Assembly (NCBI RefSeq): GCF_003202435.1
Contig: NZ_QJHK01000002.1
Span: forward strand, 186,001 to 250,000
DNA: 64,000 nucleotides
From: Flavobacterium cheongpyeongense
Lineage (GTDB): Bacteria; Bacteroidota; Bacteroidia; Flavobacteriales; Flavobacteriaceae
Direction: 5' to 3'
The stretch's first letter is position 1; each line of letters starts with the position of its first letter. The notes beneath the pieces were generated by a model. The model worked only from the letters and a program-made list of their open reading frames with translations. It made no database searches and was not told where the DNA came from. A program made the translations under genes and the position numbers. Positions 46,802 through 58,642 of this stretch are shown here, piece by piece.

Positions 46802-49800
46802 ATGAATCTTACTGCACAATTTTCAAGAAAAATTCTATTTTTCTTAGCCATTATATTATCAGGTTTAAAGGGTTTTTCACAAAACAAATCAATTACACTG
46901 CATTTTAAAAATGAACCAATTAGCTTGATTATCAAATCTATTGAAGAACAAACTGATTTTAGGATCATCTATAATTCAAAAAAAATTGATGCCGATCAAA
47001 AAGCGAGTATAAATGTAAAAAATGCCTCTTTGGAAGCTGTTTTAAAACAATTATTTAAAAGCAAAAATATTTCGTTTTATATTCAGAAAAAACAGGTTTT
47101 ATTAACGAACTCTACTCCTCCTTCAAGAGATAATTCAGAAGAAACAGAAAGAACAATCAAGGGAATTGTATTGAATGCTAAAGATAGCTCGCCGTTACCC
47201 GGAGCAACAGTAATGGTAAAAGGAACCGGAAGAGGTGCTATAACGGATATTGACGGAAGGTTTATTTATCAGTTGAAAGAAAAACACATCGCTAATGTTG
47301 TCCTTCAGGTTGTACTGCTCGGAATGGTAACTCAGGAACAGGAAGTTGGTAATGAAAATGATTTTACTTTTTATATGGAAGAAGCTGTAGATGAGCTGAA
47401 TCCGGTTATTATTACATCTTCGTACGGAACAAAAAAGTTAAAAGAAGAAATTGTAGGAAGTATTTCAACTATTACGGCAAAAGATATCCCGGTGCATCAA
47501 GCCTCAGAAAGTATTGATAAAATGCTTGAAGGGCAAATGGCTGGTGTTTTAGTTGAAAATACTTCAGGCGTTGGAGGTCCTGTAAAAATTAATATTCGTG
47601 GACAGGGAACATTAAAACCATTAAATGGAAATCTTATAAGTACATCCTCGCAACCTTTAATCATTATTGATGGAATAATTATGACAGAAGAAACCGGTAT
47701 TGATAATGGTTTCTTTACTGGCGTTGGAGGTGATGGTGAAAACTTATCAAATCCTCTGGCAAGAATATCTCCTGATAATATTGAAAGTTTTACTGTATTG
47801 AAAGATGCAGCGGCAGTAGGTTTATATGGTGCAGATGGCGCAAATGGAGTTATACTGATTACCTCCAAAAAAGGTAGAAAAGGCAAAGCTAAATTTAGTT
47901 TTTCGAATCAGCTTGGAACTTCGACTGCTATTAATCAAATCAAATATCTCAATGGTGCTCAATATGCTGAACTTAGAAATGATTATTTAAAAAATACTAC
48001 AGCTAATTATGTTCCGGTTCCCTATAACGGCATAAATACTAACTGGTTTGATTTATTAAATAATTCAGGTATGTATAACAAATACAATTTTAGTGTTACA
48101 GGCGCAACTTCTAAATTTTCTTATAATGCTAATTTAACGTATTTAGATATTGATGAACCTCAGTTAGGCAATACAACGAAGCAATTAAATGGAGGAATAA
48201 ATTTAGGCTACAGAACATCCAAATGGAATATCAACTTATCTCTCAACCCTAGTTACATCAAAAAAGATGCTCCAAACATCTATTATGATTTTGCATATTT
48301 ACCAAACCTATCCCCTTATAATGCTGACGGAACATATTCTAAAGTTGGATTGAATGGTATAACTGGAGGTAATCCCCTAGCAGCTATTGATCAAAATATG
48401 AACGTAACAGATTCGTATAGCGTTTTGGGAAGTTTGAACTTAGGATACGAGCTGAATAAAAACATAAAAATTTCTACTTTATTCGGTATGGATTATAAAG
48501 ATAAAACTCAGGATCGTTATTTTTCTGCTGAAAATGAAAGTGGTCAGGCAAATGGTTCTTTTATGTATGAGGGCAATATCTATCCTGCTTATGGAAGACG
48601 TCTTATCAATGAGCGAAATTCAACCAAATGGAATTGGCAGGGACAGGCATTATTTAATAAACAAATCAATCAGGATAATGCCATAGATGGTGTTTTAGGC
48701 TCTGAACTTTCTGAAGAGAGAACTGATTTTAACTATTCATCCGCCAGAGGTTTTGTAAATCCAAATATAATAAACGATATCCAAGATGCTATTCAGGATG
48801 ATGATCCTTTAACCCCTTTAGTGGATGAATCTAAGGCAAGACAAGCTTTTGAAAGTGATATTAATTATAATTCAAGAGTCTCTTTCTTTTCTCAAATTAA
48901 TTACAACTATAAGAAAAAATATTATTTCTTAGGAAATTTTAGGCGTGATGAAAGTTCCGTTTTTGGTAATGACACCAATGTAGCCCTAAACAGTGGTGCT
49001 GGCCTGGCCTGGTTAGCAAGTAATGAAAACTTTTTAAGATCAAGTTCGTGGATTGATTTCTTAAAACTAAAAGTAAGTTATGGTTCTACAGGTAATTCAA
49101 GAATTGGTTCTTACAGATCAAAAGGACTCTATAATATATTAGAAAATGGATACAATGGTGGAGAATATGCAACTCCAAGCGATGCTCCTAATGGAAATTT
49201 GAAATGGGAAAAAAATAAAAAATTTAATGCCGGTGTAGATTTTAATGTTTTTAAAACTATCGAATTAACATTAGAATATTATTATGATGATCTCAGCGAT
49301 TTGATTACAAGCAGGGATATTCCTGTAGAAACCGGATATAGTTCTGTACAGTTAAATGCTGCAAGTATGTATAACACAGGTTTTGAATTAAGTACGCGAA
49401 TCAAATGGTTTCAGAAAGGCAAATTTAAATGGACAACTGCATTTAATATCTCTACTGTAGATAGTAAAGTAACTGATTTAGTAGGATTAGGCAGTGATTA
49501 CTCAACAGCATCAATCGCACTTGCACAAAAAATTGGTTACAGTACTACAACAATCTGGGGAGCTAAGTGGGCCGGAGTTGATCCTGCAACTGGAAGGGAT
49601 TTAATAAATAAAGATGGGCAAATTTATGATGCTGCAGCATATAACAGGACATTTACAGCAGCAGACTGGGAGCCAATTGGTGATTCACAGCCTAAAGCTT
49701 TTGGTGGATTTAACAATAGCTTTTCTTTAAATAATAGCATCACATTAGGTATAACAGGGTCTTTTCAATGGGGTGGGGATAAATTAGTTTCTGATAATAT

Positions 49801-50155
49801 TATTTCAAAATATCAAATTACTTCAAACCGAAATATGTCTGTGAACGCTTATGATTACTGGAGAAAACAAGGAGATATTGTTTCTCAGCCGGCTCCAAGC
49901 AATACTGCTTTAGTACCTAATTTAGACAGAAACATTTACGATGCTACCTACATCAAAATCAGTAATATCAACCTGAGTTATAATGTTCCAATAAAAAATA
50001 CTTTTCTGGATGCCTTAACTGTTTTTGCAAATGTCACAAATGCATTGTATTGGTATAAAGAAAAGAGCCCGGAAGGAATGAACGGCATTAGAGAATTCAG
50101 CTATACTTATCCACAAGCACGAACTATTTCGTGTGGTATTAATACTAAATTTTAA
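46802..50155 (+). CDS. SusC-family TonB-dependent transducer with N-terminal STN domain
   Basis: Outer-membrane importer that also signals to FecR. At 1117 residues it is longer than the xylan SusC because of an STN domain (about 28-103, ITLHFKNEPISLIIKSIEEQ). Then come a carboxypeptidase-like domain (about 118-205, IKGIVLNAKDSSPLPGATVM), plug (NPVIITSSYGTKKLKEEIVG, PLIIIDGIIMTEE, AAAVGLYGADGANGVILITS) and barrel, ending GINTKF. The SusC TonB-box region has ITSSYG in place of VVIGYG. The substrate is not evident: no glycoside hydrolase is in the operon, only a lipoprotein and a di-haem peroxidase, so metal, haem or another ligand is possible. Confidence 0.93.
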   Translation: MNLTAQFSRKILFFLAIILSGLKGFSQNKSITLHFKNEPISLIIKSIEEQTDFRIIYNSKKIDADQKASINVKNASLEAVLKQLFKSKNISFYIQKKQVLLTNSTPPSRDNSEETERTIKGIVLNAKDSSPLPGATVMVKGTGRGAITDIDGRFIYQLKEKHIANVVLQVVLLGMVTQEQEVGNENDFTFYMEEAVDELNPVIITSSYGTKKLKEEIVGSISTITAKDIPVHQASESIDKMLEGQMAGVLVENTSGVGGPVKINIRGQGTLKPLNGNLISTSSQPLIIIDGIIMTEETGIDNGFFTGVGGDGENLSNPLARISPDNIESFTVLKDAAAVGLYGADGANGVILITSKKGRKGKAKFSFSNQLGTSTAINQIKYLNGAQYAELRNDYLKNTTANYVPVPYNGINTNWFDLLNNSGMYNKYNFSVTGATSKFSYNANLTYLDIDEPQLGNTTKQLNGGINLGYRTSKWNINLSLNPSYIKKDAPNIYYDFAYLPNLSPYNADGTYSKVGLNGITGGNPLAAIDQNMNVTDSYSVLGSLNLGYELNKNIKISTLFGMDYKDKTQDRYFSAENESGQANGSFMYEGNIYPAYGRRLINERNSTKWNWQGQALFNKQINQDNAIDGVLGSELSEERTDFNYSSARGFVNPNIINDIQDAIQDDDPLTPLVDESKARQAFESDINYNSRVSFFSQINYNYKKKYYFLGNFRRDESSVFGNDTNVALNSGAGLAWLASNENFLRSSSWIDFLKLKVSYGSTGNSRIGSYRSKGLYNILENGYNGGEYATPSDAPNGNLKWEKNKKFNAGVDFNVFKTIELTLEYYYDDLSDLITSRDIPVETGYSSVQLNAASMYNTGFELSTRIKWFQKGKFKWTTAFNISTVDSKVTDLVGLGSDYSTASIALAQKIGYSTTTIWGAKWAGVDPATGRDLINKDGQIYDAAAYNRTFTAADWEPIGDSQPKAFGGFNNSFSLNNSITLGITGSFQWGGDKLVSDNIISKYQITSNRNMSVNAYDYWRKQGDIVSQPAPSNTALVPNLDRNIYDATYIKISNINLSYNVPIKNTFLDALTVFANVTNALYWYKEKSPEGMNGIREFSYTYPQARTISCGINTKF

Positions 50156-50158
50156 AAG

Positions 50159-51637
50159 ATGAAATATTTAAAAAGTATCATTAGATCAAAATATATAATC
50201 ATTCTAACTATAAGCTTTTTAATGTATAGCTGTAGTAATTTTTTAGAACAGGAGCCAGGAGATAAAACTTCAATTACAGAACAGTTAAAAGATAAGAAAG
50301 GAGTATTAATGGCATTAAACGGTTTATATTTGGCCCTCAAAAATAATGTGAGTGGAGAAATATTTTCTGTTTATGCAGACCTGCAGGGCGGTAATTTAAA
50401 ATTTAGCCCTTCTCTGGTAGCCGGTACAAAAGGAGAAATCACCATTCCTGAAAACATAAAAGAAGTATATTCCTTCGAAGATCAGTCTGTGGAATCTGAT
50501 TTTGCATTATTCTACACAAATGGCTATAGTATTATCAATCAGGCAAATCTTATTTTAGAATATACAGATGCTCTGTTAGATGCTACTGCAGCAGAAAAAA
50601 GTCAAATAAAAGCTGAGGCTATGACTGTTAGGGCTTACATGCACTTTTTGCTAAGCGAAATCTATAGTCAAAATTACGGATATACTCAGGATGCTTCTCA
50701 TATGGGGATTGTTTACAGTACCCACTCGATTGGTAAAGGTATTACTTATCCTGCAAGGGAAACTGCCGCCAATACTTATTCATTGATTATAAATGATCTT
50801 AAAACATCTCTTGATTTATATAGTAACGCGGTTCTTTTCGATGGCCCTGCTTATTCTTATTTTAATAGTAACAGTACAAAAGCTTTGTTGGCCAGAGTTT
50901 ATCTCTCTAAAAAGGATTGGAAAAATGCTTATGATACGGCAAATGATGTAATCGAAAATTCTGGTGTAAGCCTGATAAGTTCTGCCGATTATATTTCACA
51001 ATGGGAAAAGATAGATCTCCCTACATCCGAAACTTTATTAGAATTTTCTGTAACTAAAAATACCGATGGATCTTTTACCGGATCATTATCATCCTATTTT
51101 GGATATACTTTTGATACTAATTATGAAAGGTATACAGCATCGCAGGATTTGATTGATCTGTATGAAACCAATGATATTAGAAAACAGCTGTTTTTAGTAA
51201 AACCACTTTCTACATTGGTGAATTTACAACCGGTAATGCTTAACTATTATTTTACTAAAAAGTTCCAGGGAAATCCCGGATATGTGGCATTTAGGTTAAG
51301 TGAACAATATTTAATAAGGGCCGAAGCATCAATAGGACTTAATAACCCGGAACAGGCAAAGAAAGATATTAATATTATAAGAGAAAGAGCAAACGCTGCT
51401 TTATTAACTACTACAGATAATATTGCCGAAGCTTTGTTTCTGGAAAGAAGAAAAGAGCTTTGTTTTGAAGGGCACCTGTTTTTTGATATAGCAAGGAACA
51501 AAAAGGATATTTCTCGTACTGATGGCTGCATATCGTTAAACTGCGGACTCACCTACCCATCACCTAAGTATGTATTACCAATACCACTAAATACTCTTTA
51601 CGTTAACTCAAATTTAGAACAAAATGAATCGTATTAA
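50159..51637 (+). CDS. SusD/RagB-family lipoprotein paired with the STN-SusC
   Basis: Surface lid of the second SusCD importer. Lipoprotein signal with Cys25 (M-Y-S-C), then SNFLEQEPGDKTSITEQLKD. SusD hallmarks are AEAMTVRAYMHFLLSEIYSQ, ALLARVYLSKKDWKNAYDTA, VAFRLSEQYLIRAEASIGLN and LERRKELCFEGHLFFDIARN. It starts 4 bp after susC, and its last 14 bp overlap the next gene. 492 residues is somewhat shorter than the xylan SusD. The ligand is unknown. Confidence 0.93.
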   Translation: MKYLKSIIRSKYIIILTISFLMYSCSNFLEQEPGDKTSITEQLKDKKGVLMALNGLYLALKNNVSGEIFSVYADLQGGNLKFSPSLVAGTKGEITIPENIKEVYSFEDQSVESDFALFYTNGYSIINQANLILEYTDALLDATAAEKSQIKAEAMTVRAYMHFLLSEIYSQNYGYTQDASHMGIVYSTHSIGKGITYPARETAANTYSLIINDLKTSLDLYSNAVLFDGPAYSYFNSNSTKALLARVYLSKKDWKNAYDTANDVIENSGVSLISSADYISQWEKIDLPTSETLLEFSVTKNTDGSFTGSLSSYFGYTFDTNYERYTASQDLIDLYETNDIRKQLFLVKPLSTLVNLQPVMLNYYFTKKFQGNPGYVAFRLSEQYLIRAEASIGLNNPEQAKKDINIIRERANAALLTTTDNIAEALFLERRKELCFEGHLFFDIARNKKDISRTDGCISLNCGLTYPSPKYVLPIPLNTLYVNSNLEQNESY

Positions 51638-53096
51638 AATTATATCTGTATTGTATATCGTTGCAACATTATTTTTTTCTTGTTCTAAGGACGACTATAG
51701 ATTAGACTCAAAAAACTTTGATCCTTTTATAAGGTTTAATTTATTGGTAAACACTTCAAATAATATTCCACTGGAATATCCATCTGTTAATACCGTTTTG
51801 GCTCCTATAGTTAGTTTTGAAAACAAATCGGTAAAAACATTAAAAGTACCGGTAACATTAAGTTCAATACCTTTAAAATCTGCTATTACAGCAAAATTTA
51901 GTGCTGTTACTTCCGGAGATGTAAATAGTTTTAGTATAGAACCTACAAACGAATTACTTTTTGAAGGAAGTAAATTAACTGATACTATCTTTATTTCTTT
52001 TGAAAAAAGATGGAAAGAAAAACAAACTATAACCTTAAAATTAGAAAGTACATCTGATCCTGAAATTCATATTGGTAATTTAAATACATCTGTTTCAAAT
52101 GACGTCCTAACAATCACATTAGGCGAAGTGAGTACACCGTATTCATTGTCAGCAAATAGAATAGTTGTAAAAGGAGCTGCTGGCGAAACAATTGACTTTA
52201 AAGTAAATTTTCCTAACGGATTTATTCCTTCAGAAATTGAAAATCTTGCTATTTTCAAATTTCTAAATGGCTTTGATTATTCTTTAACTCATGATGACTT
52301 TGGGGATAACAGAAAATCAATTACCTATCACTTAACTCTTTTAGAAGATATTCAGGAAGACGATGTATATTATGAAACCAGCATTACACTTGTAAATGCA
52401 GGAGATTATATTGCTACGGGAACGAGTGTCTTACAAATCGTTAAACCTATAAAATCGAATCGTGATATTCTTGCAAATCCTGCTTCTAAATTCTATGATT
52501 TATCAAATCAATTTTACCTGACATATGGTGAAAACTGGTTTGATAGAAGTGGTACTTGTGCATGGCAGGCTTTTAATGCTTTTACTTTTCCTGTGGTAGT
52601 AACAAAGGATAATGAAAATGCCATCTTGTACAGTGACAAAGGAAACACAAACCCTAATGATGATGTTTACCATGATGCTTTTAAAATTGGGTTTAATGTA
52701 TCTACCGGTACTAATACAACCAATTCATTTAATCTAAAAAGATGGTTTTCTAACGAAAGTACTACTAGCGCAAACTCACCAGGATTTAATATTACATCAG
52801 CATTAGAATTTTTTCCTGAAAACGGTAACAGCAAAACGAATGGAAAAGTTCTCGTAATTCCTCAATATATCACAATTACCGGAACGAATAAAAACAGCTA
52901 TAGTATTGCAATTTCAGGTCAAGGAACTTACAAAGAAATTAGTACGGGTTTATTTGAAATTTCTTTTGAATTGAAATTAACCAACGATAAACTTTTTGGA
53001 GGAACAGTCTCTTCTCAATATAGGATTTACAATAATAAAGTTTATCCAACATTAGCACCTTTAAATGAATCTTGTCCTAAAGAAGTTACATTATAA
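51624..53096 (+). CDS. Unknown surface lipoprotein of the SusCD/peroxidase operon
   Basis: Not recognised as a named family. A lipoprotein signal with Cys20 (F-F-S-C) is followed by S-K-D-D, an acidic run resembling surface-export signals of Bacteroidota lipoproteins. The rest (490 residues) looks all-beta, with Ig-like strands (VKTLKVPVTLSSIPLKSAIT, SNDVLTITLGEVSTPYSLSA), a middle region with Trp and Cys (YGENWFDRSGTCAWQAFNAF), and a C-terminal lipocalin-like pattern (KNSYSIAISGQGTYKEISTG). It overlaps susD by 14 bp and ends 2 bp before the peroxidase, so it belongs to the complex. Role: possibly an extra ligand-binding subunit. Confidence 0.75.
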   Translation: MNRIKIISVLYIVATLFFSCSKDDYRLDSKNFDPFIRFNLLVNTSNNIPLEYPSVNTVLAPIVSFENKSVKTLKVPVTLSSIPLKSAITAKFSAVTSGDVNSFSIEPTNELLFEGSKLTDTIFISFEKRWKEKQTITLKLESTSDPEIHIGNLNTSVSNDVLTITLGEVSTPYSLSANRIVVKGAAGETIDFKVNFPNGFIPSEIENLAIFKFLNGFDYSLTHDDFGDNRKSITYHLTLLEDIQEDDVYYETSITLVNAGDYIATGTSVLQIVKPIKSNRDILANPASKFYDLSNQFYLTYGENWFDRSGTCAWQAFNAFTFPVVVTKDNENAILYSDKGNTNPNDDVYHDAFKIGFNVSTGTNTTNSFNLKRWFSNESTTSANSPGFNITSALEFFPENGNSKTNGKVLVIPQYITITGTNKNSYSIAISGQGTYKEISTGLFEISFELKLTNDKLFGGTVSSQYRIYNNKVYPTLAPLNESCPKEVTL

Positions 53097-53098
53097 TT

Positions 53099-54247
53099 AT
53101 GAAATTAAAAAAATTAATAATACCCGTTTTACTGCTTTTGAGTTTAACAGCTTATAAAAGCACCGAAGAACCTGATTACACAGATATCCAGGAACTAAGA
53201 AAAGTATACTCATCTGGAGATACCTCAAAATGGCCTGCTGCGGAATTGCATGAAAGTATCGACAAATCTAAATTTCAGGATATCGGGGTACTTCCTGCTG
53301 TTCCTTATCCTGCTTACAATCCCTATTCTAAGGAAAAAGAAAGTCTGGGCAAAGTATTATTTTTTGATCCAAGATTATCCAACAGCGGACAAATTGCCTG
53401 TGCTTCCTGCCATAATCCGGAATTAGGATGGACAGATAACCTGACCCGTTCTTTTGGTCATGACCGCCAGACCGGAAAACGAAATTCGATGACTATTTTA
53501 AATTCGGCTTACGCAACTTCTTTATTTTGGGATGGTCGTGCCAAGAGTTTAGAAGATCAGGCACAATTCCCTGTAGGTGATCCTTTAGAAATGAACGAAA
53601 AACTGACGATTGCAGTAAGCAAAATTGGAAAGATAAAGGGTTACAACCCGCTTTTTGAAGCTGCTTTTGGAGACAAAAAAGTTACGCTCGAAAGAATTCA
53701 GTATGCTATTGCTACATTCGAAAGATCCATCAACAGTCCGAAAAGTAAGTTTGATTATTTCGTTAGCGGAAAATCAGATGCTTATACGGATCAGCAGGTA
53801 AAAGGACTGCATTTGTTCAGAACCAAGGCACAATGTATCAACTGTCATAACACGCCTTATTTCAGCGACAACCAGTTTCATAATGACGGACAGGTTTTAT
53901 TCGGAACAAAAAATGAAGACTTCGGGCGTTACAATGTTACGAAAGACGTAAAAGATATTGGCAAATTCAGAACGCCTACGCTTCGTGAAGTGGTGAACAC
54001 CAGACCATGGATGCATCATGGGCATTTTCCAACTTTACTGGATGTGGTTGAATTTTACAATTTAGGAAATTCTGCAAAAATTCAAAAAAAATATCTAGGA
54101 ACAGCACGTGACTCTTTAATACCAAAATCGGATCCTATTTTAAAAAAGCTAAAACTAAACAAAACTGAAATGAATGACCTTATATCGTTTATTGAAACTC
54201 TAAGTACAGCTTCTATTAGAATAAAATCACCTAATTTACCTAAATAA
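53099..54247 (+). CDS. Di-haem cytochrome c peroxidase (CcpA/MauG family)
   Basis: Periplasmic or surface di-haem enzyme that reduces H2O2 or, like MauG, modifies a partner. Two c-type haem sites, CASCH (101-105) and CINCH (246-250). Met305 in TRPWMHHGHFP is the expected distal ligand of the high-potential haem, favouring peroxidase over MauG (which has Tyr). NSMTILNSAYATSLFWDGRA is also characteristic. The hydrophobic leader ends SLTAYKS, where a Cys would make a lipobox; Tyr is present instead. It closes the susC-susD-lipoprotein operon (2-bp gap). A truncated second copy of its 3' end lies 2.3 kb downstream. Confidence 0.93.
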   Translation: MKLKKLIIPVLLLLSLTAYKSTEEPDYTDIQELRKVYSSGDTSKWPAAELHESIDKSKFQDIGVLPAVPYPAYNPYSKEKESLGKVLFFDPRLSNSGQIACASCHNPELGWTDNLTRSFGHDRQTGKRNSMTILNSAYATSLFWDGRAKSLEDQAQFPVGDPLEMNEKLTIAVSKIGKIKGYNPLFEAAFGDKKVTLERIQYAIATFERSINSPKSKFDYFVSGKSDAYTDQQVKGLHLFRTKAQCINCHNTPYFSDNQFHNDGQVLFGTKNEDFGRYNVTKDVKDIGKFRTPTLREVVNTRPWMHHGHFPTLLDVVEFYNLGNSAKIQKKYLGTARDSLIPKSDPILKKLKLNKTEMNDLISFIETLSTASIRIKSPNLPK

Positions 54248-54443
54248 GCAGTTGATTCCTAATTTATAGTTTCCTAAATATACGGCTCTGAAGAATTTAC
54301 ATATGAATAATTCAAAGAAATACGAAACCTTAGTTAAACATAATTTCGAAATCAAATAAATGGGCGGTGCATAACCAAAAACAGTACCTGAAGCCATCGT
54401 CCCGTAAAATTTAACGAAACCAAAAGGGAAGCCATATTTTTTT
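54248..54443. other. Spacer between peroxidase and ferredoxin genes
   Basis: 196 bp with a G+C-richer part (about 54361-54440) than the AT-rich cassette that follows. On the minus strand a frame is open through the whole spacer; an ATG within it gives 53 codons (54236-54397, start MASGTVFGYAPPIYLI) that overlaps the peroxidase end. No promoter was assigned. It may be a recombination scar. Confidence 0.4.
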
Positions 54444-55517
54444 ATGAAAAATTTTTATTTATTGCTCGTATTTATTGTTCTATCATCTTGTTCAAGTGAA
54501 GAAGGTATAATTCAAAGCAAAACTGAAAAACCAAGTATTACAACTGAAATTAATCCAAAAGTAATTGACACTTTTAAAATTTATGGAAAATATAATTTTG
54601 AAAAAATCAATACTAAAAAAACTAAAAAAAGTAAAATTTTTAAAAAATTTAAAACGTTTGAAGAATTTGAAATTTGGGCTAAAAAGTTACAGCCTTATAA
54701 TTTTGAAAACTTACAAACTTTAAGCAGTAAAAAAGTAACAAAATCAGATACTATTGTAATCCATAATTATAATGGAAAATCATTCATTCTTCCGAGATAT
54801 TCTAATGCCGTCTCTAAAAATGTACAAAAAAGCTCTTCCATATATGGCACTTGGCAAAATGACACCCACATTTATAGCCAATCATTTGCACTGACAAATG
54901 TATACGGAACTTTACAATACCGTTACTGCAGTGGTACATATAATTTTTCAGATAAATATGAGTATGGAATTGATTTTGGACTGGGAGGGTTTGTAGCTGG
55001 AATGCATATTAAGGATATGGGATCTACAGTTAACTATATGAATACCCAAACATTAAAAATTAATGCCAAAATAACTATTGGATACGGTCTTCAGATAGAT
55101 CCAATTGGAGAAGTCATATATTGGCAAGATCCAGAATCTAGTATTTGGAATTTTACAAGTTCAGAAATTCCTGGCTACTATTCAAAAAATGGAAGCAATT
55201 GTTCCAAAGATTTAGCAGACTTAAGCGGCCCTACTTACAAAGTAAAATTAATAAACTGGGAAGAACAAGAAATTGAATGTCCTAGAGATGTTTACATATT
55301 AGATCAGGCAGAAGAGTACGGAATTGGTTTACCATATTCTTGCAGAGCTGGTGCGTGTTCTACATGTGCTGCAAAATTAATAAGTGGTTCAATAGATCAA
55401 GCAGATCAAAGTTTTTTAAATGATGAACAAATCAGTAACGGCTTTGTATTATTATGTTCTTCATATCCTACCTCAGACTGTACTATATTAACTCATCAAG
55501 AAGAAAATCTATATTAA
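54444..55517 (+). CDS. Lipoprotein with C-terminal plant-type [2Fe-2S] ferredoxin domain
   Basis: Lipoprotein signal with Cys16 (L-S-S-C) followed by S-S-E-E, similar to surface-lipoprotein export signals. Residues 20-130 are Lys-rich; 130-260 look beta-rich and are unrecognised ([20 protein letters not shown]). Residues about 263-357 are a ferredoxin domain: Cys300, Cys305, Cys308 and Cys338 give C-X4-C-X2-C-X29-C, exactly the spacing of chloroplast ferredoxins, in [16 protein letters not shown] and [10 protein letters not shown] ferredoxin tethered outside the inner membrane is unusual. The gene is markedly more AT-rich than the upstream peroxidase, and the next gene starts 1 bp after its stop. 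Confidence 0.88.
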
Positions 55518-55518
55518 T

Positions 55519-56208
55519 ATGAAATTATTAAGCATTATTGTCATTTTTCTATTGACAAATATTACGTTTTCACAGGATAGTATTTCAAATTCTAAAAAAT
55601 TAGACTCTATTCTTAAGACAGATTTTTTAAGTTATAATTATAAATATCTTGATAAAACATTTAAAATAAACATAAAGCAAGATGTATATAACAAATCTCT
55701 TACTGAACATAAATTTATTTTAAATAAAACATTTAATTATTCAGATTCATTAAATGTGGTTCTAATGGCAGAATTTAACGATTGGGATGCTACCAGAATT
55801 GCAAACTTAAGAATAACATATTCTTGGGACAGAGTCGGGTATTATTTATGGAAGGAAAAAGATGAAATTATTGAAATTGCAAAAAAAAATAATATCCATC
55901 ATCCTTATAGATTACAAGAATTAATCAAAAACAATAATGAAAAAGTTTCAATTGAAATAGATGAATTGAGAAAAAAACTTTTTTTACAATTTGGAAATAT
56001 TGATTTGAAGACAATGACTGTAGATCAACTTTTAGCATTTTCTTTTAAAAATAATCCAAAAGTTGTTAAACTAAAACAAGAAAGTATCAAAAAAAGTAAT
56101 ATTAGAAAATTTGTTGCCAAACATAATAGACAGCCAACTGCTCTTGAAGAAAAAAATTTAGGAGAGGGATGTGGAAAAGAAGATTGTTGTCAAAAACCAT
56201 CAAACTAA
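55519..56208 (+). CDS. Unknown exported protein with Cys-rich C-terminus
   Basis: Not recognised. 229 residues with a signal peptide (MKLLSIIVIFLLTNITFSQ), a charged, mostly helical body (YYLWKEKDEIIEIAKKNNIH) and a tail GEGCGKEDCCQKPSN whose three Cys could bind metal or form disulfides. It starts 1 bp after the ferredoxin-lipoprotein stop, so the two are probably translated together and may interact. Very AT-rich, like its neighbours. Confidence 0.7.
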   Translation: MKLLSIIVIFLLTNITFSQDSISNSKKLDSILKTDFLSYNYKYLDKTFKINIKQDVYNKSLTEHKFILNKTFNYSDSLNVVLMAEFNDWDATRIANLRITYSWDRVGYYLWKEKDEIIEIAKKNNIHHPYRLQELIKNNNEKVSIEIDELRKKLFLQFGNIDLKTMTVDQLLAFSFKNNPKVVKLKQESIKKSNIRKFVAKHNRQPTALEEKNLGEGCGKEDCCQKPSN

Positions 56209-56359
56209 TATTCAATAATATAATACAACTCATTTAAGTAACTGAGTATCGAAATTGATTTGATACTCAGTTAAAATAAAATTAATAAAATTATTTTTAA
56301 TATAACTTTCTAAAGTGATATTGAAAATAAAGCATCAATCATTCTAAAATTATTATTTT

Positions 56360-56569
56360 ATGGACAAATTAATAGATCAATTCTCAGTAGGCTTATATAT
56401 ATATCAAACTTCTATTTTATTACACATAATCTTAGTTTCAATATCTACTTACTATATTTTTAAAAACTCCACTAAATTGAAAACTCCATATCTTGCAATA
56501 TTATTATCTATATTATTTCCTTTTATAATTTCTATACCAGCCATAATTTACCTTAAGAGGAAATCTTGA
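56360..56569 (+). CDS. Small two-TM membrane protein, unknown
   Basis: 69 residues with two hydrophobic segments (about 15-34, YQTSILLHIILVSISTYYIF; about 45-63, AILLSILFPFIISIPAIIYL), a short basic loop (KNSTKLKTP) and a basic end KRKS. No family recognised. It is the last gene of the AT-rich cassette, directly before the peroxidase fragment. Coding status is plausible but not certain. Confidence 0.5.
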   Translation: MDKLIDQFSVGLYIYQTSILLHIILVSISTYYIFKNSTKLKTPYLAILLSILFPFIISIPAIIYLKRKS

Positions 56570-56582
56570 TAAAAACAACACT

Positions 56583-56933
56583 AAAATATTTAAAGAAAAT
56601 GAAGATTTCGGTCGATATAATGTAACGAAAGATGTTAAAGATATAGGTAAATTCAGAACGCCTACGCTTCGTGAAGTGGTGAACACCAGACCATGGATGC
56701 ATCATGGGCATTTTCCAACTTTACTGGATGTTGTAGAATTGTATAATCTTGGAAATCCATCACCTGTTCAGAAAAAATATCTGGGAACGCCACGCGATTC
56801 TTTAATTCCAAAAGTAGATCCGATACTCAAAAAATTAAATTTAAGCAAAGAAGAAATGAGCGATCTGCTGGCTTTTATCGAAACTTTAAGTACGCCAACG
56901 AGAAGAATTATGGCACCGGATCTTCCGAAATAA
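56583..56933 (+). pseudogene. 3' fragment of a second di-haem peroxidase gene
   Basis: The frame from about 56595 to the stop aligns with codons about 272-382 of the intact peroxidase at 53099. It includes RTPTLREVVNTRPWMHHGHF but neither haem-binding CxxCH. Bases 56649-56731 are identical to 53963-54045 over 83 bp, while flanking parts differ at many positions. The 5' two-thirds are missing and the fragment begins about 20 bp after the small membrane protein gene. An internal ATG at 56676 gives 85 codons, but a functional product is unlikely. Confidence 0.85.
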
Positions 56934-57061: not shown

Positions 57062-58642
57062 ATGAAAAATAAATATCTCTTTTTATTATTAATTTCTGCG
57101 CTGTCATTTGGACAAATAGCTCAGGTTAAAGATATAAATCCCGGAAGTGCGAATTCTTCAACTCCAACAAATCTCTTCGACTTTAATGGAACCTTATTTT
57201 TTAGAGCTACTAATGGTACAAATGGTGTCGAGTTATGGAAGTCAGATGGTACTGATGACGGAACAGTAATGGTTAAGGACATCAATACTACAACTAGTGC
57301 TGCATCTAACTCAAATGCAGCAAATTTTACTGCATTTAATAATCAAATCTATTTTACAGCTTCAAACGGAACAACTGCTAATGGTTCCGAACTTTGGAAA
57401 ACAGATGGTACCAGCGCTGGAACAGTTATGGTCAAAGATATAAATGCAGGAACAGCAAACTCAAACCCACAGCTATTTACTATAATTAACCCAACAACTA
57501 TGCTTTTTTCTGCTACTGACGGTGTTGGAGGCGTTGAACTTTGGAAAACAGATGGTACAGAATCAGGAACTCTAAATGTGATTGATCAGCCAGGTACAGG
57601 TAATAGTATAAGCTGGATTGAAAACCTAAATGGTAATGCCATTTTAAGTCAATTAGTTGTTACTACTACTGGAAGAGAATTATACAAATATGACGCTACA
57701 TCTACTAATTCATCTTTGATTTTAGATATCTATGCAGGAATTTCTCATGGAGTAGCAACAACTTATTTAAAAAATGGAAACATTATTTATTTTCAGGGAA
57801 ACAGCGGAACAACAGGATTTGAATTATGGAAAACTGATGGTGCTACAGTGGAGACATCATTGGTAAAAGATATTAATCCCGGTACTACGGGCTCTGCTCC
57901 TACACGTTTTACAAATTCAGGAAATATTACTTTTTTCAGAGCAAATGGCCCTAACGGAGTTGAATTATGGAAAACTGACGGAACAGAAGCAGGAACAACA
58001 GAAGTTGTCGACATTAATCCTGGAACAGGCAGCTCAACACCTGATCAGATTCAATCAGTAAACGGTATACTCTATTTTTTCGCTTCTGATGACGGTATCA
58101 ATTATGATTTTTATAAATATGATAATAATACCTTGACAAAATTGGTGGATTTCAATACAATAACATCATCTGCTACTGTTGATTATATAGAGTTAAACGG
58201 AATAATATATTTTACAGCTGATAGCGATAAAGATGGCTTAAGAGAATTATGGCAAACTGATGGTACTCCTTCAGGTACCGTTGCTATTTCAGGAGCAACC
58301 AACGTTTCAAACTTAACAAAAGCAGGAAACAAACTGTTTTTTGCAGCTACCGGAACTGACGGACAGGAACTTTTCACCTACACTCCTCCTACCCTTTCTG
58401 TAAAAGATCAGGACAAATTAGAAACTGTATCAATATATCCAAATCCTTCTGATGGAAATTTCTTTATCAATAATGCTGATAATGAAACTATACAATACGA
58501 AGTGTTTGATGTATTAGGTAAAAAACAAGCTGCAGGTAAAACGAATAACAATTCACTTCATTTAAATTTAAAAACGGGTTTGTATATTTTAAAACTGACT
58601 AAAAACCGTCAGACTTCAACCACGAAAATAATAATCAAATAG
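57062..58642 (+). CDS. Secreted ELWxxDGT-repeat protein with T9SS sorting tail
   Basis: Extracellular beta-propeller-like protein of 526 residues. After a signal peptide (ends near SFGQ) there are six ELWKxDGTxxGT-type repeats (for example ELWKSDGTDDGT, ELWKTDGTSAGT, ELWKTDGTESGT, ELWQTDGTPSGT), each followed by a VKDINPGT-like strand. The C-terminal 80 residues form a type A T9SS sorting domain (VSIYPNPSDGNFFI, LKTGLYILKL). Function unknown; such proteins are usually surface or secreted adhesin-like. A strong terminator follows. Confidence 0.93.
   Translation: MKNKYLFLLLISALSFGQIAQVKDINPGSANSSTPTNLFDFNGTLFFRATNGTNGVELWKSDGTDDGTVMVKDINTTTSAASNSNAANFTAFNNQIYFTASNGTTANGSELWKTDGTSAGTVMVKDINAGTANSNPQLFTIINPTTMLFSATDGVGGVELWKTDGTESGTLNVIDQPGTGNSISWIENLNGNAILSQLVVTTTGRELYKYDATSTNSSLILDIYAGISHGVATTYLKNGNIIYFQGNSGTTGFELWKTDGATVETSLVKDINPGTTGSAPTRFTNSGNITFFRANGPNGVELWKTDGTEAGTTEVVDINPGTGSSTPDQIQSVNGILYFFASDDGINYDFYKYDNNTLTKLVDFNTITSSATVDYIELNGIIYFTADSDKDGLRELWQTDGTPSGTVAISGATNVSNLTKAGNKLFFAATGTDGQELFTYTPPTLSVKDQDKLETVSIYPNPSDGNFFINNADNETIQYEVFDVLGKKQAAGKTNNNSLHLNLKTGLYILKLTKNRQTSTTKIIIK

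What the first reader, a model, noticed from the sequence alone, without database searches (positions are those of the whole stretch)
54444..55517. Lipoprotein carrying a plant-type [2Fe-2S] ferredoxin domain outside the cytoplasm
The sequence shows a lipobox Cys (Cys16) and, in the same frame, Cys300/305/308/338 with the exact C-X4-C-X2-C-X29-C spacing of chloroplast ferredoxins. Ferredoxins of this family normally work in the cytoplasm or plastid, and clusters are assembled there. A Lys-rich then beta-rich N-terminal region of about 240 residues is fused to it and I do not recognise it. The S-S-E-E after the lipid Cys resembles a surface-export signal. This could be an extracellular electron carrier, an iron-sulfur bait or store, or a lipid-anchored toxin or adhesin using a ferredoxin fold.
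Basis: partly seen in the sequence, partly recalled or inferred. Interest (0 to 1): 0.78.

Follow-up and report, generated by a model that had tools for sequence, protein, structure and literature searches.

The report
Ferredoxin-tipped lipoprotein toxin–immunity candidate
A bacterium that is probably a Flavobacterium carries a gene for a predicted surface lipoprotein that ends in a near-perfect plant-type ferredoxin, one base away from a gene for a small protein with a predicted export signal; half of the similar lipoproteins examined have lost iron-sulfur ligands while keeping most of the rest of the ferredoxin, so the pair is likely a bacterial-competition (toxin and immunity) module that would use the ferredoxin shape for recognition rather than for carrying electrons.

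Summary
In detail: window 54444-55517 encodes a 357-aa lipobox protein (Cys16) ending in a plant-type ferredoxin domain with the exact Cys spacing (fdx_plant 142 bits, cut-off 81). One base downstream lies a companion (55519-56208; helical model, signal-like start) found in the same place in the three related loci read. Of 38 ferredoxin lipoproteins examined, 19 keep all four ligands and 19 lack two or more, while other conserved ferredoxin positions are on average equally kept (0.767 vs 0.772). So cluster binding is not the family's common function. Companions beside intact ferredoxins have a CGxxxCCQ tail (3 of 3), those beside ligand-poor ones do not (0 of 7). In two genomes the anchor and ferredoxin precede an HExxH domain; that domain recurs on ferredoxin-free lipoproteins followed by immunity-like genes, often in tandem. 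Four genomes keep the companion without the lipoprotein. The window's pair lies between 83-bp perfect repeats of a MauG gene. Best reading: a mobile lipoprotein toxin–immunity-like module whose ferredoxin fold is a docking module, by analogy with pectocins and BSAPs. Toxicity, surface exposure and cluster content are untested; no toxin domain was recognised in the window protein.

The parts
54444..55517 (+). Lipoprotein ending in a plant-type ferredoxin domain (357 aa)
   Evidence: relatives
54444..54491 (+). Predicted type II signal peptide with lipobox LSSC (Cys16); S-S-E-E follows, resembling the Flavobacterium johnsoniae lipoprotein export signal (SDDFE)
   Evidence: sequence; pattern scan; PMC5080379 passages
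54492..54845 (+). Lys-rich N-terminal region, residues 17-134; low-confidence model
54846..55163 (+). Beta-rich middle domain, residues 135-240 (eight predicted strands, block pLDDT 64-88); invariant C162 here, invariant C253 after it
55230..55514 (+). Plant-type [2Fe-2S] ferredoxin domain, residues 263-357; ligands C300, C305, C308, C338
55519..56208 (+). Companion: signal-like N-terminus, helical model (pLDDT 91.9), C-terminal CGKEDCCQ tail; immunity-like partner
56360..56569 (+). Small hydrophobic ORF (69 aa), possible third gene of the inserted segment
53963..54045 (+). 83-bp direct repeat, copy 1 (inside the MauG gene)
56649..56731 (+). 83-bp direct repeat, copy 2 (inside the leftover MauG 3' fragment)
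53099..54247 (+). Di-haem MauG/CcP-like gene whose 3' end probably came with the inserted segment
56596..56933 (+). Leftover 3' fragment of the MauG gene, closer to relatives' MauG than the 3' end beside the insert

Best explanation
Window 54444-56208 is a two-gene cassette, a lipobox protein ending in a plant-type ferredoxin domain plus a companion with a predicted export signal, that likely works as a mobile toxin-and-immunity-like pair for competition between related bacteria, with the ferredoxin fold predicted to serve as a docking module rather than an electron carrier. Shown from sequence: the two-gene layout, relatives with the same layout, the patterned loss of cluster ligands with most of the rest of the ferredoxin conserved, Fd-to-HExxH chimeras, companions kept without the lipoprotein, and an insertion scar in a MauG gene with 83-bp repeats. 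Inferred: Sec export without a cluster, lipidation, surface display, binding of the ferredoxin domain to a partner on neighbouring cells, damage by the rest of the protein, and protection of the producer by the companion. In the window's lineage, where ligands and the companion's Cys tail are both present, the tail may handle the ferredoxin Cys or a metal. The damaging part of the window protein is not identified; because the companion family also accompanies short relatives without the beta-rich domain, the companion more likely binds the shared ferredoxin or N-terminal part than the beta domain.
For: Companion directly downstream of the ferredoxin lipoprotein in 4 of 4 loci of this type read as DNA (window, L065, L066, L067), and a different immunity-like gene in the same place in the 2 of 2 Fd-HExxH loci (L063, L064). 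Ligands: 19 of 38 intact, 19 degenerate, with equal mean conservation at 66 other positions (0.767 vs 0.772, Mann-Whitney p 0.95). Chimerism: L063/L064 share N-domain plus Fd with P0021 (37-38% over about 280-290 aa) but have another C-terminus; their HExxH part is 39-59% identical to those of ferredoxin-free lipoproteins L259-L261, and their downstream gene is 28-40% identical to genes downstream of these. L264 has family members (39-45%) downstream of a more distant HExxH lipoprotein. Small genes follow in tandem in L259, L261, L262 and L264; L262 also has a second, displaced HExxH cassette. Orphans: 4 of 6 genus genomes with a companion have no ferredoxin lipoprotein beside it nor any hit over the fdx_plant cut-off. 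Among these four, companions are under purifying selection but change faster than MauG (dN/dS 0.16-0.28 in 5 of 6 pairs, one saturated, vs 0.03-0.04). Sporadic: fdx_plant over cut-off in 4 of 398 genus genomes and 1 of 395 class genomes (listed only at E up to 1e-24); companion in 2 of 397 family genomes. Insertion scar. Precedents: pectocins, BSAPs.
Against: No toxic activity is shown or recognisable in the window protein: no toxin domain in Pfam, NCBIfam or PADLOC. Short relatives are only 169-211 aa, leaving little room for a toxin. Polymorphic toxins carry the toxin at the C-terminus; here the ferredoxin is last. The HExxH domain is called a toxin from architecture alone, and the small genes of L262 did not match the L063/L064 partner family. 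Conservation in ligand-poor ferredoxins is uneven: acidic D62 and D68 drop (0.89 to 0.53 and 0.89 to 0.63), which speaks against a fully kept docking face. No ferredoxin receptor is known to me in Bacteroidota; passages of PMC6793856 on Fus-type import show Bacteroid- once, about SusC, and no Flavobact-. Short and long N-terminal regions could not be shown homologous (hhalign probability 3.4). The companion matches no known immunity fold. Orphan companions all follow the same MauG gene, so they may be one ancestral event or a MauG partner; dS is high (0.67-1.49), so dN/dS is rough.
Confidence: 0.43

Rival explanations
1. Extracytoplasmic electron carrier: the window's ferredoxin binds a [2Fe-2S] cluster outside the cytoplasm and passes electrons, perhaps with help of the companion's Cys tail or to the adjacent di-haem MauG-like enzyme.
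For: All four ligands and the Fd fold are present. The companion tail CGxxxCCQ co-occurs with intact ferredoxins in 3 of 3 pairs and is absent in 7 of 7 degenerate ones. A MauG-like gene is adjacent.
Against: 19 of 38 examined ferredoxin lipoproteins lack ligands. The signal is a lipobox signal without twin Arg, so the chain is probably exported unfolded (inference). I recognised no MauG gene by eye in the 15-16 kb around the modules of G069 and G569, and the MauG gene occurs without the module in G204 and G206.
Confidence: 0.2
2. Accessory of the SusC-SusD-MauG uptake operon: a surface or periplasmic iron-sulfur protein or bait that feeds the transporter, with the companion as fifth operon member.
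For: The companion is the next gene after MauG in 4 of 4 orphan loci, 21 bp away in three and 91 bp in one; the window pair is also downstream of MauG.
Against: In G204 and G206 the same spot holds a sulfatase-like and a transposase-like ORF (by eye). The window pair arrived by insertion. Other copies lie elsewhere.
Confidence: 0.13
3. Protective decoy: the lipid-anchored ferredoxin look-alike occupies or masks the cell's own ferredoxin-type receptor, or intercepts ferredoxin-tipped toxins.
For: Several positions (for example F65, D59, Q63) stay conserved when ligands are lost. Short relatives have little but anchor, a helix-rich segment and ferredoxin.
Against: No ferredoxin receptor was identified here; it does not explain the companion or the Fd-HExxH chimeras.
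Confidence: 0.09
4. Decaying horizontally acquired ferredoxin with no function.
For: Rare, AT-rich, inserted segment.
Against: Open frames, purifying selection on orphan companions, and conservation of non-ligand ferredoxin positions.
Confidence: 0.05

Closest known systems
Pectocins M1, M2 and P (ferredoxin-containing bacteriocins of Pectobacterium)
   Different: In pectocins the ferredoxin is N-terminal, holds a cluster (M1, M2) and is followed by a colicin M- or pesticin-like killing domain; here it is C-terminal on a lipoprotein, no such domain was found, and half the examined relatives lack ligands for a normal cluster.
BSAPs (Bacteroidales secreted antimicrobial proteins)
   Same: Bacteroidota surface lipoprotein toxins with export signal and a C-terminal receptor-binding domain (PMC12853789 passages); same order of parts as proposed here.
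   Different: BSAPs have an MACPF domain; none was found here. Ferredoxin occurs 0 times in that paper's text.
Polymorphic toxin systems, including lipoprotein-linked SitA toxins of Myxococcus
   Same: Swappable domains, adjacent immunity-like genes, tandem and orphan immunity-like genes, displaced cassette (seen in Fd-HExxH relatives and their HExxH kin).
   Different: The window protein has no domain after the ferredoxin, and its toxin part is unknown. PMC3482391: 0 occurrences of ferredoxin in the 300,000 of 357,715 characters held (passages). SitA: listing and abstract start only (PMC5562445); the name SitA and its lipoprotein nature are recalled.
Soluble cyanobacterial and chloroplast ferredoxins (PetF)
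   Same: Domain up to about 70% identical, same ligand spacing.
   Different: Those are cytoplasmic or plastid electron carriers (established knowledge), without lipid anchor or companion.

Membership tests
Plant-type [2Fe-2S] ferredoxin domain | Family model over curated cut-off | tested here: met
   TIGR02008 142.3 bits against 81.15; Fer2 70.8 against 21
Plant-type [2Fe-2S] ferredoxin domain | Four ligands C-X4-C-X2-C-X29-C | tested here: met
   C300, C305, C308, C338 in the window protein; not kept in 19 of 38 lipoproteins examined
Plant-type [2Fe-2S] ferredoxin domain | Bound [2Fe-2S] cluster | not testable with these tools
   needs spectroscopy
Bacterial lipoprotein (surface-exposed) | Lipobox with Cys | tested here: met
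   LSSC at 16; a loose lipobox pattern was found in 37 of the 37 ferredoxin proteins scanned, P0009 left out (no signal-peptide program)
Bacterial lipoprotein (surface-exposed) | Lipoprotein export signal after the Cys | tested here: inconclusive
   C-S-S-E-E; 24 of 37 have two or more acidic residues at +2 to +6, no background rate computed; F. johnsoniae consensus SDDFE
[quoted passage not shown]
   ferredoxin is C-terminal; only Fer2 found by Pfam
Pectocin-type ferredoxin bacteriocin | Uptake through a FusA-type receptor | not testable with these tools
   needs receptor and competition assays
Polymorphic toxin system | Variable C-terminal toxin domain on a constant delivery part | tested here: not met
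   no domain follows the ferredoxin in the window protein; a variable C-terminal part is seen in relatives L063, L064, P0021
Polymorphic toxin system | Adjacent, sometimes orphan, immunity gene | tested here: inconclusive
   companion adjacent and without the lipoprotein in 4 genomes; protection untested
BSAP | MACPF domain | tested here: not met
   no MACPF match in Pfam up to E 1

The most novel reading that the evidence does not exclude
Bacteroidota have turned the photosynthetic ferredoxin fold into a portable docking head for surface lipoprotein weapons. In several lineages the cluster ligands were discarded, giving pseudo-ferredoxins that keep much of the docking face; in others the cluster Cys are kept together with a companion whose CGxxxCC tail manages ferredoxin Cys or metal outside the cytoplasm.
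Probability: 0.28. Interest if true: 0.85.

Novelty: new variant of a known kind. Interest (0 to 1): 0.66.

Why it matters
Ferredoxin-bearing bacteriocins are known from Pectobacterium. A lipid-anchored family with a ferredoxin at or near its end in another phylum, with natural versions that keep much of the ferredoxin surface but lack normal cluster ligands, would show that ferredoxin shape alone can be the useful part. It would point to ferredoxin-type receptors in Bacteroidota and give natural variants to separate docking from redox chemistry. If the cluster-competent versions do carry a cluster, they would raise the question of how an iron-sulfur centre is built or kept outside the cytoplasm.

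Tried and rejected
Considered and rejected: membership of pectocins, BSAPs or known defence systems. MauG as the obligatory partner. Plasmid- or phage-borne companion: no match in either collection at E 1e-5.

Limits of the counts. The 38 ferredoxin proteins are the window, five loci and 32 proteins that I picked by hand from the two listings of 120 each (227 and 1662 hits in all), leaving out plant, algal and cyanobacterial proteins, others not of this lipoprotein type, and truncated copies of L065-L067; most are metagenomic and their host is inferred. One (P0009) has no readable N-terminus and one (P0199) looks truncated at the start. Ligand letters of P0173 were corrected by hand for an alignment slip. 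The companion alignment holds 31 of 48 hits plus the window and L066. The 3-of-3 against 0-of-7 contrast (Fisher p 0.008) is not independent of descent: the tree is poorly resolved and needs only five ligand-class changes. In some searches only 7 first-look candidates per genome were scored, so companions may be missed; the E-value limit was stricter than the family cut-off. One of the six HExxH loci fetched (L263) showed only a partial ORF and was not used. In one search the MauG dN/dS rows of G204 and G206 were dropped because my coordinates were out of frame.

Full report

Neighbourhood. The pair follows a SusC-SusD-490aa-MauG operon (46802-54247). One base after the lipoprotein lies a companion of 229 aa, with a signal-like start, a helical model (pLDDT 91.9) and a C-terminal CGKEDCCQ. 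A 3' fragment of a second MauG copy lies downstream. The two MauG 3' stretches are 79% identical overall but share an 83-bp perfect repeat (53963-54045 and 56649-56731). The downstream fragment is closer to six relatives' MauG (0.80-0.83) than is the 3' end beside the cassette (0.71-0.78). The simplest reading, inferred, is that a segment holding a foreign MauG end, the two genes and a 69-aa hydrophobic ORF entered by recombination within MauG and left the old end behind. The cassette genes are AT-rich (GC 0.30 and 0.24 against 0.34 for the window).

Relatives of the lipoprotein. Five relatives share the whole length at 43-47% (P0001, P0002) or 30-35% (P0012, P0013, P0082) identity, with C162 and C253 invariant. 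Short relatives of 169-211 aa have a lipobox, a helix-rich segment (my reading of the sequence) and the ferredoxin. In 398 genus genomes only 4 pass the fdx_plant cut-off, and in 395 class genomes only the window's own, in a listing limited to E up to 1e-24. Among 199 family genomes searched with the window protein, only one other genome (G069, two loci) had matches better than 1e-20. Lower-scoring hits, present in 386 of 398 genus genomes, mostly have frames of 340-390 aa and are probably reductases of the PaaE kind (inferred from length and from the PaaE model hit).

Ligand loss. Of 38 ferredoxin lipoproteins examined 19 keep all four ligands. Seven have Asp/Ser or Glu/Ser in place of C41 and C46 but keep C49 and C79; two keep C41 and C46 but have Asp/Ser in place of C49 and C79; ten have lost C46, C49 and C79, nine of them keeping C41, and all ten have a new Cys at 43. 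The pairing of C41/C46 with one iron and C49/C79 with the other is recalled, not from a call. At 66 non-ligand positions conserved in 75 cyanobacterial ferredoxins the two halves are equally conserved on average (0.767 and 0.772, p 0.95), with P38, S40, G44, D59 and Q63 at 1.00 in both and F65 at 0.95 and 1.00. Not every position fits: D62 and D68 drop from 0.89 to 0.53 and 0.63, Y82 from 0.74 to 0.37 and I89 from 0.89 to 0.37 in the ligand-poor half. This is not general decay, but a kept docking face is only one way to read it. That F65 and E94, and also D62 and D68, take part in reductase docking is recalled.

Companion. The family has 48 hits. In an alignment of 33, 11 carry the CGxxxCCQ tail and 22 do not. 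In ten pairs the tail goes with intact ferredoxins (3 of 3) and not with degenerate ones (0 of 7). Of six companion-bearing genus genomes (of 398), four have it without the lipoprotein, as the next gene after MauG (21 bp in three, 91 bp in one) behind the same SusC-SusD-490aa order. Two other genomes with this MauG have a sulfatase-like or a transposase-like ORF there (by eye). Among the four orphans dN/dS is 0.16-0.28 in five pairs and saturated in one, against 0.03-0.04 for MauG: retained, yet faster. In 397 family genomes 2 have a companion. In both companion searches only 7 first-look candidates per genome were scored, so some may be missed.

Toxin-like modularity. L063 and L064 carry lipid anchor, N-domain and ferredoxin, followed by an HExxH domain (SprT-like only weakly, below the Pfam cut-off) and a different small downstream gene with a signal-like start. 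The HExxH domain was found in 5 of 81 genus genomes; the proteins read in full there (L259-L262) are lipobox proteins without ferredoxin. The downstream gene family of L063/L064 follows in L259 (two ORFs), L260 (one), L261 (two) and L264 (two of four small ORFs match it clearly); L262 has three small genes that do not match it, and a displaced second HExxH cassette. P0021 shares the N-domain and ferredoxin of L063 but not its C-terminus. Such module exchange with adjacent and arrayed partner genes is what defines polymorphic toxins (PMC3482391, passages, for module exchange; arrays recalled).

Mechanism. I infer that the lipoprotein is exported through Sec unfolded, lipidated and shown at the surface. 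BSAPs, a class of Bacteroidota surface lipoprotein toxins, carry their receptor-binding domain at the C-terminus (PMC12853789, passages), and in pectocin M1 inhibition by spinach ferredoxin suggested that the ferredoxin domain binds a receptor (PMC3302902, passages). By analogy the ferredoxin would dock to a partner on a related cell, and the companion would protect the producer. What damages the target is unknown. A companion family shared by long and short lipoproteins argues that it contacts the shared parts.

In print. Searches listed no paper that I recognised as dealing with lipid-anchored ferredoxins of Bacteroidota; I saw listings and abstract starts only, plus the passages cited. Subscription papers are mostly not covered.

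Verdict. The finding is real and more interesting than stated, but the electron-carrier reading is not the family's common denominator. Toxin-immunity function is the best-supported guess at 0.43.

Noticed in passing
L259-L262, L264: Flavobacterium lipoproteins with a C-terminal HExxH domain followed by one or several small immunity-like genes; L262 has a displaced second HExxH cassette. Looks like a lipoprotein polymorphic toxin family; whether it is described in print was not searched by itself.
   Followed up: partly
P0014, P0015, P0016, P0031, P0033, P0066: Ferredoxin domains on proteins with peptidoglycan-hydrolase domains (glucosaminidase, phage lysozyme). P0014-P0016 were read: hydrolase first, ferredoxin last, no signal peptide by eye. 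Possible lysis or bacteriocin proteins of unknown host.
   Followed up: no
P0041, P0046, P0067, P0069, P0085: Ferredoxin domains on proteins with precomputed PF13020, pentapeptide, HEAT-like or CHAT (PF12770) domains; P0085 is named as from Chamaesiphon (a cyanobacterium).
   Followed up: no
window 54248-56595 and the same spot in G204, G206, G213, G407, G519, G529: The position after MauG in the SusCD operon holds variable cargo: companion alone, sulfatase-like, transposase-like, or the ferredoxin pair.
   Followed up: partly
window 56360-56569: 69-aa hydrophobic ORF in a 20% GC stretch between companion and MauG fragment.
   Followed up: no
L065:5785-6525: Lipoprotein with a Gly/Ala/Cys-rich hydrophobic C-terminus near the ferredoxin pair of G569; no Pfam match; bacteriocin-like appearance.
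   Followed up: no
window 57062-58642: ELWKTDGT-repeat protein with a type IX secretion tail (Por_Secre_tail).
   Followed up: no
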